From positions 25,718,125 to 25,782,124 of the forward strand of contig NC_084599.1 of assembly GCF_033807715.1 (NCBI RefSeq): a stretch of DNA of 64,000 bases, in the 5' to 3' direction. This document shows, in pieces, positions 20,198-55,677 of the stretch; the first letter of the stretch is position 1; every line of letters starts with the position of its first letter. The notes under the pieces are model-generated. The model made no database searches and was not told where the DNA came from. It saw only the letters and a list, made by a program, of their open reading frames with translations. The DNA comes from Cololabis saira (taxonomy: Eukaryota > Chordata > Actinopteri > Beloniformes > Belonidae). The position numbers and the translations under genes are program-made.

Positions 20198-21753
20198 ATG
20201 TCGGAAATGCCTGCTGGGAAGAAGAAAAGTCGTTTCCAGATCACGAGTGTAACGCAGGCTCAGGTGGCGGTGGCCAACATCCCCGACGACACCGAGAGCC
20301 AGGACGACCCCGACGAGTCTCGGACGGAGGATGTGTCATCGGAGATATTTGACGTTTCTCGGGTGGAGCTGGGCGTGTGTGACAGGAGCTCGTCGGAGGA
20401 GACGCTAGAGTCCCAGGAGCCCGCCACGGGTCCCGTCAACGGGGGACTGCCCTATAAAAGTTCAGCTGCTGGTCGTGTGACCCCTCATACTGCAGGGGCC
20501 GGTGTGCCTGTGCCTGTAGCTGCAGCTCAGCCCTTTGTTTCCAGCTCCAACACCGCTGTCTCCACCGCCGCGGCTCCCACGGCCCCCAGCACTAGTTGTA
20601 GTTCTCGTTTCAGGGTCATTAAACTTGACCACGGTACTGGAGAGCCCTTCAGAAGGGGCCGGTGGACATGTACTGAGTTTTATGAGAGAGATTCAGATTC
20701 AAATATCAATCGGACTGTGGACACCATAAAGCCAGCTGCGACTATTGATCACAGTATAGACAGAGACAGTGGGTTAGGGGCCACTAATAATTCTGTTATC
20801 ACTAGCAGTACCTTTTCTGCACAGGCTTTGGAGAACACCGTAGAGAGTGGCTTTTCTGTCTCTGTGGGGCACCCCGCCCACTCTAACCCTCCAGATTCTC
20901 TGCAGCAAGGCTACAGCTTGCCCCCTCAGATAGGGAGTGGAGGAAGTGCCTTCCAGTCCACAGGTTATACAACTACAGCATCACAGCAACCAAAACAGGC
21001 CCAGGTCAATAAGCAGCCCGTTACTCCCCAAGCTTTCCTGTCTAATAGTCTAAATGGTGTGCACCAAGCTGTCTTGCAGCAGAAGTCATCCATTATACCT
21101 CCTGCCACACAGGCCCAGCAGTTTGCCTATGCTGCTCATCCTACTGCCTCTTCTAGCCATCCAGACTATCATCAGCAACACTTTGGCTCAAGCACTCAGA
21201 CCATGACATCCTCCTCTGCAGGGGGTTCAGGCGGCCATGTATCCTCGCCTCAAATTGTCCCTGCTGGCCAAGGAACACAGGGACAGGGTGGTGAAGCAGG
21301 CTCAGCCCAGGGTCTCACAGTACAAGGGGGAAATCCACAGGCCATGGTCCCCAGCCTTCCAGGAAATGCACACCAGCACCCTGTCAGCCAGGCCCAGCCT
21401 TCGGGAGGATTAGTTGTCTCCCCGGGATCATCCATCATCACCACCGCCACCACCATCCTTTCCCAGATCGGTGGCCAGAGTGTGCCTGCCACAGTGCCCA
21501 GTGCAAACAGCATCCCTTCAAGTGGGGCAAGTCCGGTGCCTGGCACAGGGGGACAAATCCTGCTCCACAGAGGAGCCATCACAGGTCTTCAGGCAGAAGA
21601 TTTCAGGCAGAAAACCGATTCCCCATCACAGCATAATGCTGGCCCTGGGAAAGATGGTGTAAAGCCTTCCATAAGCGAGGGCTTTGGTTTGGCCACTCCT
21701 GTCGTCAACAACCTGTTCAACATCCAAATTACCATGGATGTAGATGAAGACAG
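20198..21753 (+). CDS. tsc22d2: TSC22 domain family protein 2, long isoform, exon 1
   Basis: This exon encodes residues 1-518 of the long isoform and two bases of codon 519. The start ATG (GCAACATGT) gives [18 protein letters not shown], matching the conserved N-terminus of TSC22D2. Conserved blocks are RFQI at 12-15; the acidic [20 protein letters not shown] (36-55); SSSEETLES (64-72); and [12 protein letters not shown] followed by [14 protein letters not shown] (about 135-165). The remainder is a low-complexity Gln/Ser/Pro/Gly-rich, probably disordered region. RFQI and RFRV fit the RFx[V/I] motif bound by the CCT domains of SPAK/OSR1-type kinases; long TSC22 proteins are reported to work with NRBP1 and WNK signalling. 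The exon ends with ACCATGGATGTAGATGAAGACAG, then the donor GTAAGAG. Reading through gives AGG TAA, so the unspliced frame stops at once. The C-terminal [10 protein letters not shown] is typical of the family just before the TSC box exons. Confidence 0.96.
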
Positions 21754-24700: not shown

Positions 24701-25885
24701 ACAAACATTTGAGGTTTTTGTTTTGTTTTCTTTTTCAGATAAAAGCTCAAAAGTTAGTGTCTGAATTTGTCCTGGCAGAAAGTGCTTGTTTTAGGACATT
24801 GGCTAGACTTTTAAAACATTCCATCTTTCATGTATATGTACTGATATTACACATTTCATGCATTTTTTTTTCTTCTAATGACTAAATTCACATGTCCTTG
24901 TATGGTAGTACACCTCAAAACTACTTTTGGAGTAGAAGGTGGTAGGAGTAGAAGTTGGCAGTCGGAAGTGTAATTTTAGCTATAGTGAGCTGTAATTAAA
25001 ATGCCTCGTAAAACCATAAATTTCTAGTAAATGTATTGGAGGATATTTAAAAATAATATTACAAAGAACACATGCCAACATGACAGGACATATTTTTTTT
25101 AAACTTTCTCCCCTTGGCAAACATGCATTGTTTTGAGTATGAGCTCAGCTTCACTGAAGAATCTGTTCCAAGTTTCATTGTTCTGTTATGAATTAGTGCA
25201 CATCGCAAAAGTGGAACAATGCTTTGTAGGGGTGGAGTTGTAAGATGGCCATGATTTCCCCTCAGCTTGGAATGGTTATCAGCCTGGAATGGTTAGCCTC
25301 TGTGCTTAGCACACCCCATCTTTGCCAAGTAATGTGATGAAGCTGCCCCTGGGACAAATTGATTTCCTTCAGTGGGAGCATTTGGCCTTCACATTAATTT
25401 ATTTTCCCTTGACAAACCTCCCACAGCCTCAGTGTCTCAATGAGTAATGGTTATTATTTATCAATAATTGGATTTTCTTGAGCATACTGATAGTGGCGGC
25501 TGAGCAATCCAAAAGGATACAAAGCATTTTAAAAGTAACTCTGTTGACATATTTGTGTTTAATCAAATGCTGATTAGGAGAGTGGAACGTTACCATAAAA
25601 CAGATAATACTCTTGAAAGTACAAATGTAAACACATAATTTATTACAACTTGTGCTGAAAAGATTCATGATATAGTAATGACAAAGAAAAAAATGAGGAA
25701 CCTATTTCCATGTTGAATCACCCTGATCTTTTAATCAAGGTAATGCGTAGAAAAACAAAGCTTTTCTTTGGTTTATTTGTAAATGTATATTTTGCGATGT
25801 GCCCTCCATTTATTACCTCAAACTCGAGCTTTGATTAATTAGATCTAGACATTGTAAATACTCTCTGCTTTCAGGTATTTTTGCT

Positions 25886-26371
25886 CAGTGCTTGAAAACA
25901 GCTGTCATTAAGCCACTTTTCAAAAGGAACAGTCTAGACTGCTCACTTATCGGCAGCTACAGGCCCGTATCAAACCTACTCTCTCTTAGTAAAGAAAAAG
26001 TAGAAAAAGCTGTTTTTCAACAGCTATATAACATCCTGACTCTAAATTACTGTTTTGAAGTTTTCCAGCCAGGTTTCCAGCCGGATCACAGCACTGAGAC
26101 AGTTCTAGTAAACGTCCTTAATGACATCCGCTCCAATACGAATAGTGGCAACATTTTAGTTTTGGTCTTACTAGATCACAGTGCTGCATTCGACACGGTC
26201 GTCCATGACATCTTGATACACCGATTGAATAATTGGGTGGGACTTTCTGCCACAGCACTTGCCTTGTTGGAGTCCTATCTACAACACAAGGACTATTTTA
26301 TGTCTTTAGGAAACTACAAATCAGAGCTAACAAAAATTACATGTGGAGTTCCTCAAGTATCAATACTGGCG
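25886..26371 (+). pseudogene. LINE reverse transcriptase fragment
   Basis: The frame reads KTAVIKPLF, then YRPVSNLLSL, QPGFQPDHSTETVL, the motif-A-like VLLDHSAAFDTVVHDIL and the motif-B-like GVPQVS. These are reverse transcriptase blocks of L2/Rex1-type non-LTR elements. The usual GVPQGS has become GVPQVS, and the catalytic YxDD block and everything after it is missing. It also lacks the N-terminal endonuclease. It is a dead fragment inside the tsc22d2 intron. Confidence 0.88.
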
Positions 26372-26925
26372 ACAAAATCAATTCCATTGCTTTATTTTCT
26401 ATTGGACTGTACTTGACGTGACGTGGCACGCCGTTTTGAGCGGATTATTTGTCGGACGCCCTGCTTTATTTTCTTCCTGTCGCTCGCGTTGAAAGCCGGT
26501 TGAAAGCGCTGTAGGAAACGGTCATGGATGAGGAACGGCTGATCCAGTTAGTTGAAATGAGAAGTTATCTCTATGATACCTCCTCATTTCACTAGAAAAA
26601 CCTCAATAAAGTGGCAGCTGGCTGGAGGGAGATGGACAGAGAGTGTCCGATGTCACGCAGTGCGAAGCGATAGTCGGACGGTCGCATGCTGTTACACGCT
26701 TTTATAGTTGTGGCCGTGGTTTGCATTTTGGTTACGTAAAGAAAATGCGCAGTATCTGAATGACTCGTAGAAGCCACATCACACTGGATGGCTCATCCAG
26801 CTGTACAGACACTGCAGAATTTGGTTGCTTTCCTCCTCCTCTGAGTTGGCAGGCTGAGGGGAGACCACTTTATATATGTTAGAGCAAGAAAAAAACATGT
26901 TTTTCATGATCGGTCCCCTTTAACT
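26372..26925 (+). mobile_element. PIF/Harbinger-like remnant with MADF-like start
   Basis: An ATG at 26524 opens MDEERLIQLVEMRSYLYD, then a stop at 26593 in place of one codon, then KNLNKVAAGWREMDREC and a stop at 26671. The spacing of LI-LVE, LYD, N-K-W-E resembles a MADF domain, as found in the second (DNA-binding) protein of PIF/Harbinger transposons. The right edge carries CATGTTTTTCATGAT and GGTCCCCTTTAA, a plausible TIR. No matching left end was found, so the element is truncated or merged with the LINE fragment. Confidence 0.5.
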
Positions 26926-40345: not shown

Positions 40346-40732
40346 TAAAACATCTTCAGTGCAAAGTAAATTAAACATGTCTTTGTACAGGTGTCAAATG
40401 GGTTGTTTGTGCTTTTTTACATTTGGACATCAAGGTTCAATATTTGCAGTCAGACTGTTATTAATATCATATATCAACATTTACAGAACTGGTGATATGT
40501 ATCTGATGTGGCTCGTAACTTGATCTACTCGGTGGTTTGAATTTTATTGGGGTATCTGGTCAGAGTAAGTCAGTACGGATGTTATCACATCACAGAGCAA
40601 AAGCTTTGGTGGTCACAGTTGTTGCACTTGGCCTTGCTACGGCATGCCGTTTCTGAATAGAGCAGATGTTATGGACTGTGTCACCATTTCCCTTGATCTG
40701 TCACTGTGGTTTAGGATCTTCCTTTGCTCTCT

Positions 40733-40847
40733 TTTTCTCAATCTCTCCTCTTTCTCAATCTCTCCTCTTCCTCTCTCCCAGTGTCTGTGCTTCCCTTTCT
40801 TTATTCATGTTTCTTCTGTCTCTGTTTCCTCCCTCATAATAATGCAG
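40733..40847 (+). promoter_or_regulatory. Duplicated polypyrimidine tract of the cassette exon
   Basis: TTTCTCAATCTCTCCTC occurs twice in tandem, followed by CT-rich sequence leading to TAATAATGCAG. UCUC and CUCUCU elements of this type are bound by PTB-family repressors, so the arrangement suggests regulated inclusion of the 72-nt exon. Function is inferred. Confidence 0.5.
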
Positions 40848-40919
40848 GAACCCATCCACCGCTTTCTACCAGGCTTTCCGGCCTAGCAGATTACGGGGGT
40901 CAAAGCCCATCAATGATAG
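40848..40919 (+). CDS. tsc22d2: tsc22d2 cassette exon (24 codons)
   Basis: The exon sits between the acceptor ATAATGCAG and the donor GTATGAG. It is 72 nt long, so skipping or using it preserves frame. Joined to the two bases left by exon 1 (AG), it reads RNPSTAFYQAFRPSRL followed by RGSKPIND, with no stop. It leaves AG, which the next exon completes to a Ser codon. Inclusion gives a 652-aa long isoform, skipping 628 aa. A strong polypyrimidine tract precedes it. From memory, vertebrate TSC22D2 has a similar 24-residue segment just before the TSC box; an alignment would settle it. Confidence 0.82.
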
Positions 40920-42466
40920 GTATGAGCGTGGTTGTGTTTACACGTGTCTGTATGAGGCCTGGACTGGCTGGCTAAACCAGAGCCTGCACCGCTTCAGCCT
41001 GTGCACCGAGCAGAAAAATGTCTATCTTCAGTAAAAATGAAGCGAAAAAAGGGAGTTATACAAGTTTGTTTGAAATAAACCCATCAATAACCATTTAATG
41101 ACATATTGTAATCAGTTTTTCAATCAACTTGGTTTTGAAAGAGTTTTAAAAGAGTATCATTAGATAAGTTTCAGTTCAATTATTAAATTACTGGAGGATA
41201 GTTGACATTATTTGCATTTAAATTCTGATTTCATTGAAGTTCCTTTTTGGCCACAGCTGCAAAGTTTTATAGATTTATTAATTTTAACGTTTTCATTATT
41301 CTTTTAAAGTTCTTCAGCACTTTTGTGATGGATAGGCTTAGGTTTAGAATATTTCACATTAATTTCTAATCTTTAAAAAAAAAAAATGTAATTAACACCA
41401 GGAGAAATAAAAGATTGAAAGTACTGGGGCGTTTTATGCGTTTAAACATGAAGGAGATCAAATCCATTTTAAAACGAATGGAAAAGTGCTGTTTTATGGT
41501 TGCCAAATAAATGCCTTGTCAAGCTGGACATTTCAGCAGGTGCGAGTGTGTAAAGCCTGTGGAAAGCCACTGGAGGTGGCGTCAGGTTGCGCTTCGGGAC
41601 CCTCTGAATTGGCCTGTAGCTTTGACACCATCAGTATCTGCAGTTTGCAAGTCACGAGGATCTGGTGCTCAGGTCCCCCCTCCTCCTCCGCGTATGTGGC
41701 AAAGTTCAGGAGGGTTTTAGCTTTGCAAATATCAGATCACACTGAAGCAGCATGACAGAGGCTCCGTTGGGTTATGTCATCTGCTCTGAAGACTGTCGTG
41801 TGTATGTGTGTGTGTTCAGATTAACTTATTTATTAACAACTTGGATTTGTTGATCTGGAGAATTGTTTGTAAAATTAATTTAGTTCCCTAAAAGAAATAA
41901 GCGTGAGAGCCAGAGCTGCACTTACTAACCTGCAATGACTGGTGTTGCGTTCAGCGCTTTGAGGTAGATAGAATTTAACCTTACAAGCTAATTTAAAGGA
42001 GTGTTTATTGTGAATACTATCTTCACTAAAGTTTTATCGTGAATGTTGAACATGTATTTACTCTAAGCTATGGTACTTTTATAGCATATTACATGTTTTA
42101 AAAAGCATTTTTGCATTTGGGCTTCTGTACTTTCAGATATTGGGTCAAATCTTTTAGATGTTTTATTTGCATTCCTATAATTATCTGAAAGTGTTTTCAC
42201 CATATACAGATCACATTGGGGGGAACAAAATCAATTGAAACACTGAAGAAAAAACACAGATACTTCTTTACTTCTGGTTTTTACAGCCAAATCTCAGATT
42301 CAGTGTACCTCTGTTTTGATTTTACATTGGAGAAGGAAAAATAAACTTTAATAAAAACTCATGTCATTATTCATTTACGACATTTTAGGGAAATTTGAGG
42401 GATTTGTATAGTTACCATTAGTTACCATTTCCTTACAATCTGGATTCCTGCATTGCCGCACTGAGA
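40920..42466. other. tsc22d2 intron sequence, nothing bounded
   Basis: An 89-codon open frame at 41486-41755 (+) carries a CKACGKPL stretch but lacks convincing exon signals in a matching phase. No mobile element with ends was recognised. Confidence 0.45.
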
Positions 42467-49083: not shown

Positions 49084-51386
49084 GACATGCATCAGGCCTT
49101 TTGACATTTATGTGACCCCGTACTCCAGAGAGGATAAGTCCTTGATCCTGTGATAAGTACTCTGCTGAATACAGAGGCTCGTTAACGGTCAGGATTCTCC
49201 ATTAAAGCCTGAACAGTAATTCTTTTACTGTTAACACATTCCAGTGGGGTCTTAATGCAGATTAAAGCAAACAAGTGGCATTGGGCCCCAGTCATTCGGG
49301 CAAAAGGAGAAAAAAAGTGATATTTGATATCTAGGCACATGACGTGTGCTTTAAGCCTTGAGGACCCCTGGCTTGTACACTCACCCCTTCCAGGTTAACA
49401 TAAGGAACTTGATCTTATGTTGCACTTCATCATTTCTGCGTCTGAGCTGTCTATTTCAGCCCCTAATCTAGTTTAAAATAACATAGTCTACATAAATCTC
49501 TTAAATTAACGGTCAAAGATAGTTTATCCACAGTCTGAAACATACAGATCTTATCCTTTCTGGTATGAAATCCTTAAGGGACTTTGTCTGATTCACATGC
49601 TCCCTCTCATCCGGTCGTCCATTAATATGTCCAATGAGGTTGTCCATCTTAGGAGAGGACTGGCTTGTTGCCCTGCAATATGTCACCTCAGGGCATAGAC
49701 TCTATAAGGGGCTGCCTGTATATGCGTCTGGTGATTACGCAACAGGCAAGGGTGTATCCTTTCGCCTGTTTACGAGGAAGCTCGGTGGCAGCAGACACAC
49801 CTGCGCATGACTTTGATTTAGCACTGGAAAAATAAAACCTCCCTGAAGTCTGCCTCATTTTGTTTAGTCTGCATTGTCAGTTTGGACCGCTCTTCATGTC
49901 GACAGCACATCCCGTCAGTGCGGTGTCACCCAGCACGTTCAGAGACCCTTATTACCAGACGTCAAGCATCCTGCAATTGTCACCTTTCTTTCAACCTATA
50001 CAGTGCAATAGAATTAATGGTTTTTAAAAGATCCGAGCTGCTGTTCAAAAACTGTGAAGGCTTCTCTGTTTTGATCAAGGTTCAGTTGATTGATTAATAT
50101 ACTTTAATGTGTCTTTAAATAATTTTGCAGTTCAACAGGAGCTTTATTTTTGTGTAAAAAGGACAATTGTTTCCTTGCTACAGCTTCTCATATGTGATTG
50201 TGCCACACATCTTAGAACTTGTTTGGATAGGTCAGTGTGTGAATAAATGCTGTTCTTTTATTTATTTAAATGTGTGGAAGGTGAAATCCCATTAAGGTTT
50301 ATGTAACAGTTTTCTAAAGTATGAGGATTTCAAAACATTCCCACTTCTTTGAATCCAAGTTAATTTTGTTTACCGGCTGTTTCTCAGAAAAGCACATGTG
50401 AATGATTTGACGAGATGGTTACAATGAAGGGCTACTAGACCTTCTGCACATAACACACTTTTGCAAAAACATTTTTTTTTCCTTTTCCCTCTCAGGGGCA
50501 CTGATCCCTGGTTCAGCAGTTGGATGTTTAGAGGCTGGCTTGGTTTGTTCCTGGATCATTAGGTGTTTGACCGTTCTCTAGAAGTTAAATGGAGAAGATT
50601 AGTTTCACTTCAGAGCCTTGAATATCAGTCGATCAGCTTTACAGCAGAACATGGATCATCTAGTTTTTTTATTTTTCAAGACTAAAGCCAAAGATTCTCT
50701 TGGTTCCAGTCTCTCAAAATTGCTGTTTAATTTATGTAATAATAATAACCATGGCAATGATGGTGATAATAGACTTGATTTAAAGAAATGATCATTATTA
50801 AATTGGCTTTTAATCGAGTTAAATATATAGAGTACTGGGAATTCATGGGACATGTAATGAGACTTCAGACTGTCTTCATTAAATGGAAACTCCCAGTCGA
50901 TATATGGCCTAACCATGACCTCAATAAGGGAAGACATGACTAATTGTTGTTGCTTAAAGCTGTTTTCATTATTTGAGCTTTGTGTCACATCCAGTCGGAG
51001 CCTTTACTGACACCATCTGGTGTAGTAGGTGAACTGCACCGCTTAAATCAGACTTAATGATCCGGGTTAAAGCTGATCATTTGCATCTGAAAGATAATTA
51101 TCAACAAGCATTGTCATCTGTTGTTGCAGTCTCAATCCTGCAGCTATTGTTTTGAAACAGACATGGGGAGAAAGAGAGAGGGATGGTGGATTTATCACTG
51201 TAAGCCTGAAGTCTTACTTTATTCAGCTGCTATCCCCCGCGGTGAGTGTTTGTGTGCTTTTGGTGAAGAGGACGTATGCTAGTGCATCTGGGCCTTGATG
51301 GAGAACACATTGGACTGATAAACTCAGAGACATTTAAGAAAAAGATGTGTCTTAATTGAGTTGGACAGAATTTTGAGAGGAAGGAA
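49084..51386. other. tsc22d2 intron sequence, nothing recognised
   Basis: 49590-49900 is more GC-balanced than its surroundings and could be conserved sequence. No exon or bounded element was seen. Confidence 0.4.
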
Positions 51387-52364
51387 TTGTATGAGACGAA
51401 AGGGAGATATGGTCGATATCGTTCACAAACACTTTGTGGTTACAGGAACTCACAGCCACTTAATGGTGAGGAGCTGCGTGTTGCCACAGCCCGATGGGAG
51501 CTCTGTCACAGATGTCTGGGTTCGGGTGTCTGGGCCCGGAGTCGGAGGTGTCCTGAACTGGAATGTGCTGCGTTGTTATCCTGGAGATTTTGTTGGGGAG
51601 GGCGGACAAGCGCATGTGTACGCTGCTGCAAGTCTGCAGGGAAGGTCTACGAGGAGGTTAACACAGCAAGCTCCCCTTATGTAAACCACCACATGTCTTC
51701 CGCCTTGAATAAAATGTACAATTCCTTGTGTTTTCCTTGGAACTCTGAAGGGCGACAGCTATTTTATTTTTTGATCCACTTAACATTTAATGCAACTCCT
51801 CCTGCTCGGATCTCTGGTGCTCAATCGGCTAATCTGATTCAACCTGCATACTGCTTGGTCTTTTTTTTTTCCTTTTTCTTCTTGATAAAAATCACATTCC
51901 AGTTGAAGCTTGTGGACATTCTTGTCTTGCACCAACCCAGATGTGTAGATGTCCAGTTCAAAGGAGCAATATCTTATTTTCTGGCATTGCTTATCAGGAT
52001 TAATGCCACACATCTGAGCCAGATGCTTGTTTTGGAAGGTTGCTCTGTTACCCCACTGTCATTTCATCGCTTTGGTATTGCCACGCTCTACATCGTTTCC
52101 TTACTGATGTTGAAATATATTTTTAGCTGCTGGATAAATCAACAAGGATGCAGGAATGCAGGGAAATTAGCTGGAATTTCAGAAGCTTGCCTCACATCAC
52201 ATGTTTTGGTTGTTGCTTTGCCACAGGAGGAAAAAAAAATAATGAGAGAAGGGGAGGGCTCTGCCTTTAAGCCTTTAGTCATTTTATCTGATTCAAATTC
52301 TTTTCTTCCCCGAATACATAAATATTTACGACGGAGTATTAGGGCCAAACTAAGACAAAAATAA
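51387..52364 (+). other. Long intronic open frame, unknown
   Basis: A frame without stops runs 325 codons on the sense strand of the intron. It begins at a TTG; the first in-frame ATG after that is at 51693, leaving 223 codons. The last residues lie inside a transposon end. The middle encodes hydrophobic stretches (FFFSFFFLIKITF) produced by a T run. No family is recognised, and there is no Kozak or splice support. The length is unusual for non-coding DNA but I favour chance. Confidence 0.2.
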
Positions 52365-53280: not shown

Positions 53281-53440
53281 GTGCAGGAGGAGGAGAAACT
53301 CCGCCCTCTCCCTGGACGCACCACGTGATCGGCGGGGTTTTAAGAAACACTCCACTCGTACTGCAAAGGAGAGTCGACCGGTGTTTGTCAGAGGAGGACT
53401 AGTCTTATCAGGAAAAAGAAACAACTTCTAATATCCAAAC
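53281..53440 (+). promoter_or_regulatory. tsc22d2: Alternative promoter of the short tsc22d2 isoform
   Basis: The 160 bp before the short-isoform ATG are GC-rich compared with the flanking intron. They contain CCGCCC, an E-box CACGTG at 53322-53327, and GGCGGGG followed by TTTTAAGAAA. Short TSC22-family isoforms are generally driven by internal promoters with their own first exon. The start site and inducers cannot be read here. Confidence 0.6.
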
Positions 53441-53535
53441 ATGCGCTGCAAAATGAGCTACAGTCTTCCTTGCTCCCCGTTACACTCGCCGCCGCATTCA
53501 GGCCGGCTGGTGTCCTACAGATCCAGATGTTGCAG
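53441..53535 (+). CDS. tsc22d2: tsc22d2 short isoform, alternative first exon
   Basis: An ATG at 53441 (CAAACATGC) opens 31 codons, MRCKMSYSLPCSPLHSPPHS then GRLVSYRSRCC, plus two bases (AG). The donor TGCAG/GTAAAG follows. The exon ends in the same phase as exon 1, so joining to the exon at 55040 again gives Ser and continues ASGASVVAIDNK. The product is 141 aa, in the range of the short TSC22 proteins, with a unique Ser/Pro/Cys-rich N-terminus and the complete TSC box and zipper. It lacks the kinase-binding RFx[V/I] motifs of the long form, so the two isoforms should differ in partners. Confidence 0.85.
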
Positions 53536-55039: not shown

Positions 55040-55091
55040 TGCATCTGGTGCCAGCGTTGTCGCCATCGATAACAAGATTGAGCAGGCCATG
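55040..55091 (+). CDS. tsc22d2: tsc22d2 common exon (start of the TSC box)
   Basis: 52 nt between acceptor TGTCCACAG and donor GTAAGT. It completes the split Ser codon and encodes ASGASVVAIDNKIEQAM, residues 520-536 of the 628-aa form (33-49 of the short form). This sequence is almost invariant across TSC22 proteins and begins the TSC box. The exon is used by all predicted isoforms and ends in phase 0. Confidence 0.97.
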
Positions 55092-55398: not shown

Positions 55399-55677
55399 GA
55401 CTTGGTGAAGAGCCACCTGATGTATGCTGTGCGGGAAGAGGTGGAGGTGCTGAAGGAGCAGATCAAGGAACTATACGAGAGAAACTTTGTGCTGGAGCGC
55501 GAGAATGCAGTGCTGAAGTCATTAGCCAACTCGGAGCAGCTCAACCACCTGTCCAGTCAGCTCACCAGCCCGTTGGCGCCACTGCAGCAACACCTGCACA
55601 TCACAAACGCCCCCTCTCTGGTTCACCACGAGGGGAGTCAGGGCGTCCCCCATCAGCCAAATATCACCTCAGCATGA
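55399..55677 (+). CDS. tsc22d2: tsc22d2 terminal coding exon (leucine zipper)
   Basis: The exon encodes [20 protein letters not shown], then [20 protein letters not shown] and a Ser/Gln/His-rich tail ending PNITSA and TGA (55675-55677). Leucines at 554, 561, 568 and 575 of the 628-aa form make a heptad zipper; the conserved Asn (565) lies inside it. TSC22 proteins homo- and heterodimerise through this zipper; it lacks a classical basic region, so direct DNA binding is doubtful. The ERN-LERENALLKSL style and the NITSA-type end fit TSC22D2 better than TSC22D1, D3 or D4. A Tyr follows the second heptad Leu, where relatives usually have Ile or Val. The exon is shared by all isoforms. Confidence 0.96.

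What the first reader, a model, noticed from the sequence alone, without database searches (positions are those of the whole stretch)
40848..40919. In-frame 72-nt cassette exon hidden in a 33-kb tsc22d2 intron
The exon has AG and GT borders, is exactly 24 codons, is open in the only phase exon 1 leaves, and ends in that same phase. It inserts RNPSTAFYQAF... directly before the TSC box. It would change the linker between the regulatory half and the dimerisation domain.
Basis: partly seen in the sequence, partly recalled or inferred. Interest (0 to 1): 0.75.

Follow-up and report, generated by a model that had tools for sequence, protein, structure and literature searches.

The report
Conserved cassette exon of TSC22D2
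The 72-base stretch is a real optional exon of the fish tsc22d2 gene, shared by vertebrates from sharks to primates and already present in many annotated proteins, although the one protein model seen for this fish skips it.

Summary
40848-40919 is 72 nt with AG/GT borders and keeps phase between exons 20198-21753 and 55040-55091. Its 24 residues sit at the same place in TSC22D2 proteins of sharks, teleosts, reptiles, birds, marsupials and placentals. A profile from tetrapod and shark copies alone picks this stretch out of the window's six frames (35.6 bits; next 8.7). Pelmatolapia mariae has models with and without it. The skipping form is identical over 628/628 residues to a Cololabis saira (Pacific saury) model, the only saury protein among the names shown. 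So the exon is real and very probably optional, but known: it is missing from this species' model. Its first 11 residues (RNPSTAFYQAF) are nearly fixed and weakly predicted as a short helix; the rest drifts. I infer a small binding motif rather than mere spacer. Weak splice sites and a CU-rich upstream tract fit regulated skipping. Extra: 53441-53535 is the first coding exon of a short isoform that bypasses the cassette. No RNA evidence was available.

The parts
20198..21753 (+). Coding part of the long first exon of tsc22d2 (from ATG to the donor)
   Evidence: with the shared exons it gives 628 aa, 628/628 identical to P0013
40718..40847 (+). CU-rich tract and weak acceptor before the cassette; possible regulatory site (inference)
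   Evidence: five UCUCU, the only cluster so dense in the intron; 87% pyrimidine over 40718-40835; acceptor score 1.8 against 8.2 and 9.3 for the other two
40848..40919 (+). The 72-nt cassette exon, 24 residues from R (split codon) to D
   Evidence: homology; found once in the own genome by DNA
53441..53535 (+). Coding part of the first exon of a short tsc22d2 isoform, inside the same intron, downstream of the cassette
   Evidence: 31 proteins match its first 50 residues at E <= 0.001
55040..55091 (+). Shared 52-nt exon (SASGASVVAIDNKIEQAM)
55399..55677 (+). Coding part of the last exon (TSC22 domain and C-terminus, to the stop)
   Evidence: PF01166 on P0013 residues 536-591

Best explanation
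This is the conserved vertebrate TSC22D2 cassette exon. Including or skipping it makes two long proteins (652 and 628 aa) that share the N-terminal half and the C-terminal TSC22 dimerisation helix and differ by 24 residues placed just before that helix. Shown: sequence, phase, conservation, and gene models of both kinds in other fishes. Inferred: its weak splice sites and the CU-rich tract allow cell-dependent skipping. Inferred, less sure: the nearly fixed part RNPSTAFYQAF is a short partner-binding helix that splicing adds or removes, and the variable remainder is flexible linker.
For: Exon map and phase; 91 of 120 listed homologues carry it and 28 skip it; the 76 further proteins carry it too (that query covered the cassette, so the set is biased to it); models with and without it in Pelmatolapia mariae, P0002 and P0033; tetrapod-and-shark profile finds it at E 1.2e-9; 24 of 24 residues equal to Oreochromis aureus P0001; weak splice sites and the CU tract; short helix predicted at 518-525 of P0001.
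Against: No RNA reads: inclusion in this species is not shown, and the only saury model among the names shown skips it. Most relatives are computed gene models. The predicted helix has low confidence (block means 61 and 62). No binding partner is known to me, and none appeared in the passages read. No RBFOX site (TGCATG) in the scanned 40348-41500, and PTB binding at UCUCU is recalled, not tested.
Confidence: 0.9

Rival explanations
1. The exon is real, but its residues are only spacer: it lengthens the disordered stretch before the dimerisation helix and binds nothing.
For: 13 of its 24 residues drift (3-6 of 13 identical between the window and the tetrapod, shark, gar and tarpon copies), its length varies, and most of the protein is predicted disordered.
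Against: The first 11 residues are nearly fixed from sharks to primates, which a mere spacer would not need, and they are the only helix of four or more residues predicted before the TSC22 helix.
Confidence: 0.3
2. In some transcripts the cassette starts a last exon: splicing at its donor fails, the intron is read and polyadenylated, and a long protein without the TSC22 domain is made.
For: Bird models P0190, P0191, P0192 and P0195 carry the cassette, run on past it or join differently at its donor, and end without the TSC22 domain. In the window the frame stays open 38 codons past the cassette and AATAAA lies at 41074.
Against: Beyond RYE, which overlaps the donor, the run-on shows little likeness between birds and this fish (by eye). 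No model of this kind was seen among the 120 listed.
Confidence: 0.05
3. The exon is a relic in saury: conserved in other fishes but no longer spliced in here.
For: The saury model skips it and both splice sites are weak.
Against: Frame, AG/GT borders and all 24 residues equal to P0001 of tilapia are intact. Many other fish models also skip it, as expected of an optional exon.
Confidence: 0.04
4. Chance: an AG...GT stretch that happens to be open in the right phase.
For: 36 stretches of 72 nt in the intron meet those rules.
Against: Profile match E 1.2e-9 with the next best at 8.7 bits and 20 shuffles at most 12.6.
Confidence: 0.005

Closest known systems
Long TSC22D2 isoforms of mammals (Swiss-Prot O75157 as cited in PMC2253523; human protein of 780 residues in PMC12266122)
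   Same: Primate and rodent models carry a 24-residue segment at the same place; the 11-residue core of P0141 (chimpanzee, 780 aa) and P0136 (mouse species) equals the window's. PMC2253523 says that two very similar long human isoforms are known (passages).
   Different: The other 13 residues agree at only 3-4 positions. That the human pair differs by this exon is inference plus recollection (780 and 756 aa); no call confirmed it.
tsc22d2 cassette of other percomorph fishes (for example P0001, P0003, P0008)
   Same: 23-24 of 24 residues equal in P0001 and P0003, same place.
   Different: The exon is in their models; the saury model P0013 lacks it.
Second teleost form, 'TSC22 domain family protein 2-like' (for example P0025, P0034, P0044)
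   Same: Same core at the same place.
   Different: 25 residues and another tail; probably the duplicate from the teleost genome doubling (inference). The saury copy was not located, because that search did not complete.
Short TSC22D isoforms made from separate first exons
   Same: The window has such a start at 53441 for tsc22d2.
   Different: They bypass both exon 1 and the cassette, so the cassette can alter only long forms.

Membership tests
TSC22D2 gene (TSC-22/dip/bun family) | C-terminal TSC22 domain | tested here: met
   PF01166 on P0013, which equals the window's skipping product: E 5.5e-25
TSC22D2 gene (TSC-22/dip/bun family) | Long N-terminal half matching TSC22D2 rather than another TSC22D gene | tested here: met
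   628/628 identity to a model named TSC22D2-like; the relatives align over the whole length. No tree with the TSC22D1 and TSC22D4 genes was built.
Conserved vertebrate TSC22D2 cassette exon | Homologous residues at the same place between exon 1 and the SASG exon | tested here: met
Conserved vertebrate TSC22D2 cassette exon | Phase-preserving: in frame with and without it | tested here: met
   652 and 628 aa, both open
Conserved vertebrate TSC22D2 cassette exon | Included and skipped forms both exist for one gene | tested here: met
   Models only: Pelmatolapia mariae P0002 and P0033, on contigs of equal length
Conserved vertebrate TSC22D2 cassette exon | Inclusion and skipping seen in RNA of this species | not testable with these tools
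   No RNA reads are held
PTB-regulated exon | CU-rich tract next to a weak acceptor | tested here: met
PTB-regulated exon | Inclusion changes when PTB is removed | not testable with these tools
   Needs an experiment

The most novel reading that the evidence does not exclude
The cassette is a splice-controlled docking motif: RNPSxAFYxAF forms a short helix that binds a partner (possibly within the WNK-NRBP1 complexes), so vertebrate cells switch TSC22D2 between two signalling forms without touching its dimer helix.
Probability: 0.35. Interest if true: 0.45.

Novelty: already known. Interest (0 to 1): 0.2.

Why it matters
It corrects one species' protein model. It also points to a nearly fixed 11-residue segment, switched by splicing, in a protein now tied to cell-volume control; none of the passages that I read discusses its function. 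That makes a small, testable question rather than a new system.

Tried and rejected
Sequence-only proof was rejected as insufficient: 36 equally open 72-nt stretches exist. RBFOX sites (TGCATG): none in 40348-41500. Rfam families at gathering score (0) and tRNAs (0) in the window: nothing. A terminal-exon role in fish was considered and rated low. Three other long open stretches had no Pfam match.

Literature: searched TSC22D2 with splice, exon, alternative splicing, exon skipping, isoform, osmotic, cassette exon, skipped exon, PTBP1, MBNL, RBFOX and alternatively spliced; one search searched OSTF1, TSC22D and tilapia. Of eight papers I saw passages only; none of those passages describes this exon's function. 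The library lacks most subscription papers, among them the mouse TSC22 splicing paper of Fiol and others (not held; known to me here only from reference lists). PMC7881162 mentions an unspecified TSC22D2 splice variant in glioblastoma lines; I cannot tell which.

Slips mended: one search placed the 52-nt exon one base too far right, which gave a wrong tail; corrected. Searches took the last exon two bases past the stop, without effect on the protein. One search ended with an error after printing the results cited; the percentile part was rerun. One search scored the donor of the short first exon one base off; that number is not used. One search had a wrong length class (24 instead of 25 with the preceding D), so its 24-aa entropy row is empty; its other counts stand, for 89 of the 91 cassette-bearing proteins then held.

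Full report
The exon. 40848-40919 reads ...taatgcag/GAACCC...GATAG/gtatgagc.... Exon 1 ends at 21753 in ...GACAG/gtaaga; the next shared exon is 55040-55091 and the last coding exon 55399-55677. Skipping gives 628 aa and inclusion 652 aa, both open (the lengths printed there count the stop). The skipping product is identical at 628 of 628 residues to P0013, 'TSC22 domain family protein 2-like [Cololabis saira]', so the window is almost certainly Pacific saury, a beloniform fish. It is the only saury protein among the names shown (names are cut short there, and many proteins found were not listed). The cassette's DNA was found once in the own genome.

Chance. Length, phase and borders alone are not enough: 36 stretches of 72 nt in the 33,286-bp intron meet them, and 1,450 of 30-210 nt. 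The cassette ranks first of the 36 and 12th of the 1,450 by a rough splice score. Homology settles it. A profile made from 21 distinct cassettes of tetrapods and cartilaginous fishes only (27 proteins that I chose from the lists) finds the window's exon at 35.6 bits, E 1.2e-9; the next best stretch of the window has 8.7 bits, and the best of 20 mononucleotide-shuffled windows 12.6.

Relatives. Of the 120 proteins listed (of 1,884 found), 91 contain the cassette, 28 join exon 1 directly to the SASG exon, and one (P0042) has another insert. The 76 further proteins (120 listed of 356; the query covered the cassette, so this set is biased to it) all contain it. Carriers include great white shark, smooth-hound and stingray, gar, tarpon, eel, tilapia, lizards, a snake, many birds, marsupials, rodents, carnivores, cetaceans and primates (names). 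Pelmatolapia mariae has a model with it (P0002, isoform X2) and one without (P0033, isoform X3), both listed with a longest contig of 42,111,825 bases. These are mostly computed gene models; I saw no reads.

Already known. The chimpanzee model of 780 aa contains the cassette (P0141). PMC12266122 (passages) works with human TSC22D2 of 780 residues, and PMC2253523 (passages) says that two very similar long human isoforms are known. That the human pair differs by this exon is my inference, in line with my recollection of isoforms of 780 and 756 aa, which no call confirmed.

What the residues do. The first 11 are nearly fixed: over the 21 distinct 11-residue cores among the 167 cassette-bearing proteins of 227 held, R1, N2, P3 and F7 never vary, and S4, Y8 and F11 differ in 1, 2 and 1 of the 21. 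The pattern used there requires RNP and F or A at position 7; but accounts for all 120 listed proteins as carriers, skippers or P0042, so no other core was left out in that set. The other 13 residues are equal to the window's at 3-5 of 13 positions in the tetrapods, sharks and gar compared and 6 in tarpon. The cassette's length is 24 residues in 50, 25 in 33, 21 in 5 and 30 in 1 of the 89 measured (which counts one more because it includes the preceding D or E). AlphaFold2 of P0001 with 45 aligned sequences predicts a short helix at 518-525, inside this core (R516-F526), in blocks of mean pLDDT 61 and 62, 17 residues before the long helix 543-600; the whole model has mean pLDDT 47.1, so this is a weak hint. 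A fixed core, a weak helix and a drifting tail suggest a binding motif plus linker. This is inference; the partner is unknown.

Splicing. Acceptor and donor of the cassette score 1.8 and 1.7, against 8.2 and 9.3 for the two other acceptors and 6.9 and 5.8 for the two other donors of the long transcript (rough scores from remembered frequencies). The tract 40718-40835 is 87% pyrimidine, and 40718-40847 holds five UCUCU, the only cluster so dense in the intron. UCUCU is, from recall, the kind of site that PTB proteins bind. Weak sites plus such a tract are common in regulated exons (established knowledge); regulation here is inferred.

Setting. Long TSC22D forms act with NRBP1 and WNK kinases and short forms oppose them (PMC12266109, abstract and passages); [quoted passage not shown] The window also holds the start of a short form: 53441-53535 codes for MRCKMSYSLPCSPLHSPPHSGRLVSYRSRCC and leaves the same phase; joined to the last two exons it gives 141 aa. 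31 proteins match its first 50 residues at E <= 0.001; 26 bear names, all of ray-finned fishes, and 5 have none. The cassette lies upstream of that start and so can change only the long forms.

Limits. No RNA evidence; paralogous genes in the own genome could not be searched, since ten requests were unanswered. Verdict: real and correctly read, already known, modest interest.

Noticed in passing
53441-53535 (+), upstream 53330-53440: First coding exon of a short tsc22d2 isoform inside the same intron; 31 proteins match it. A TTTTAAGAA stretch lies about 100 bases before the ATG. Models P0020 and P0042 splice this exon into long proteins, perhaps wrongly.
   Followed up: partly
40920-41079 (+) and bird proteins P0190, P0191, P0192, P0195: Bird TSC22D2 models run past the cassette donor or join differently there and end without the TSC22 domain; a Colobus model (P0196) runs past it and then rejoins the TSC22 domain. 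In the window the frame stays open 38 codons past the cassette and an AATAAA lies at 41074.
   Followed up: partly
25835-26413 (+): Broken reverse-transcriptase stretch (PF00078, E 2e-10), probably from a LINE-type element, in the tsc22d2 intron.
   Followed up: no
P0007 (Astatotilapia calliptera): Model with six extra residues (RQELKH) between the cassette and the SASG exon; no counterpart found by eye next to the window's cassette donor or the 55040 acceptor.
   Followed up: no
51360-52361 (+): Stop-free frame of 334 codons inside the intron, without a Pfam match at E 0.01; possibly chance.
   Followed up: partly
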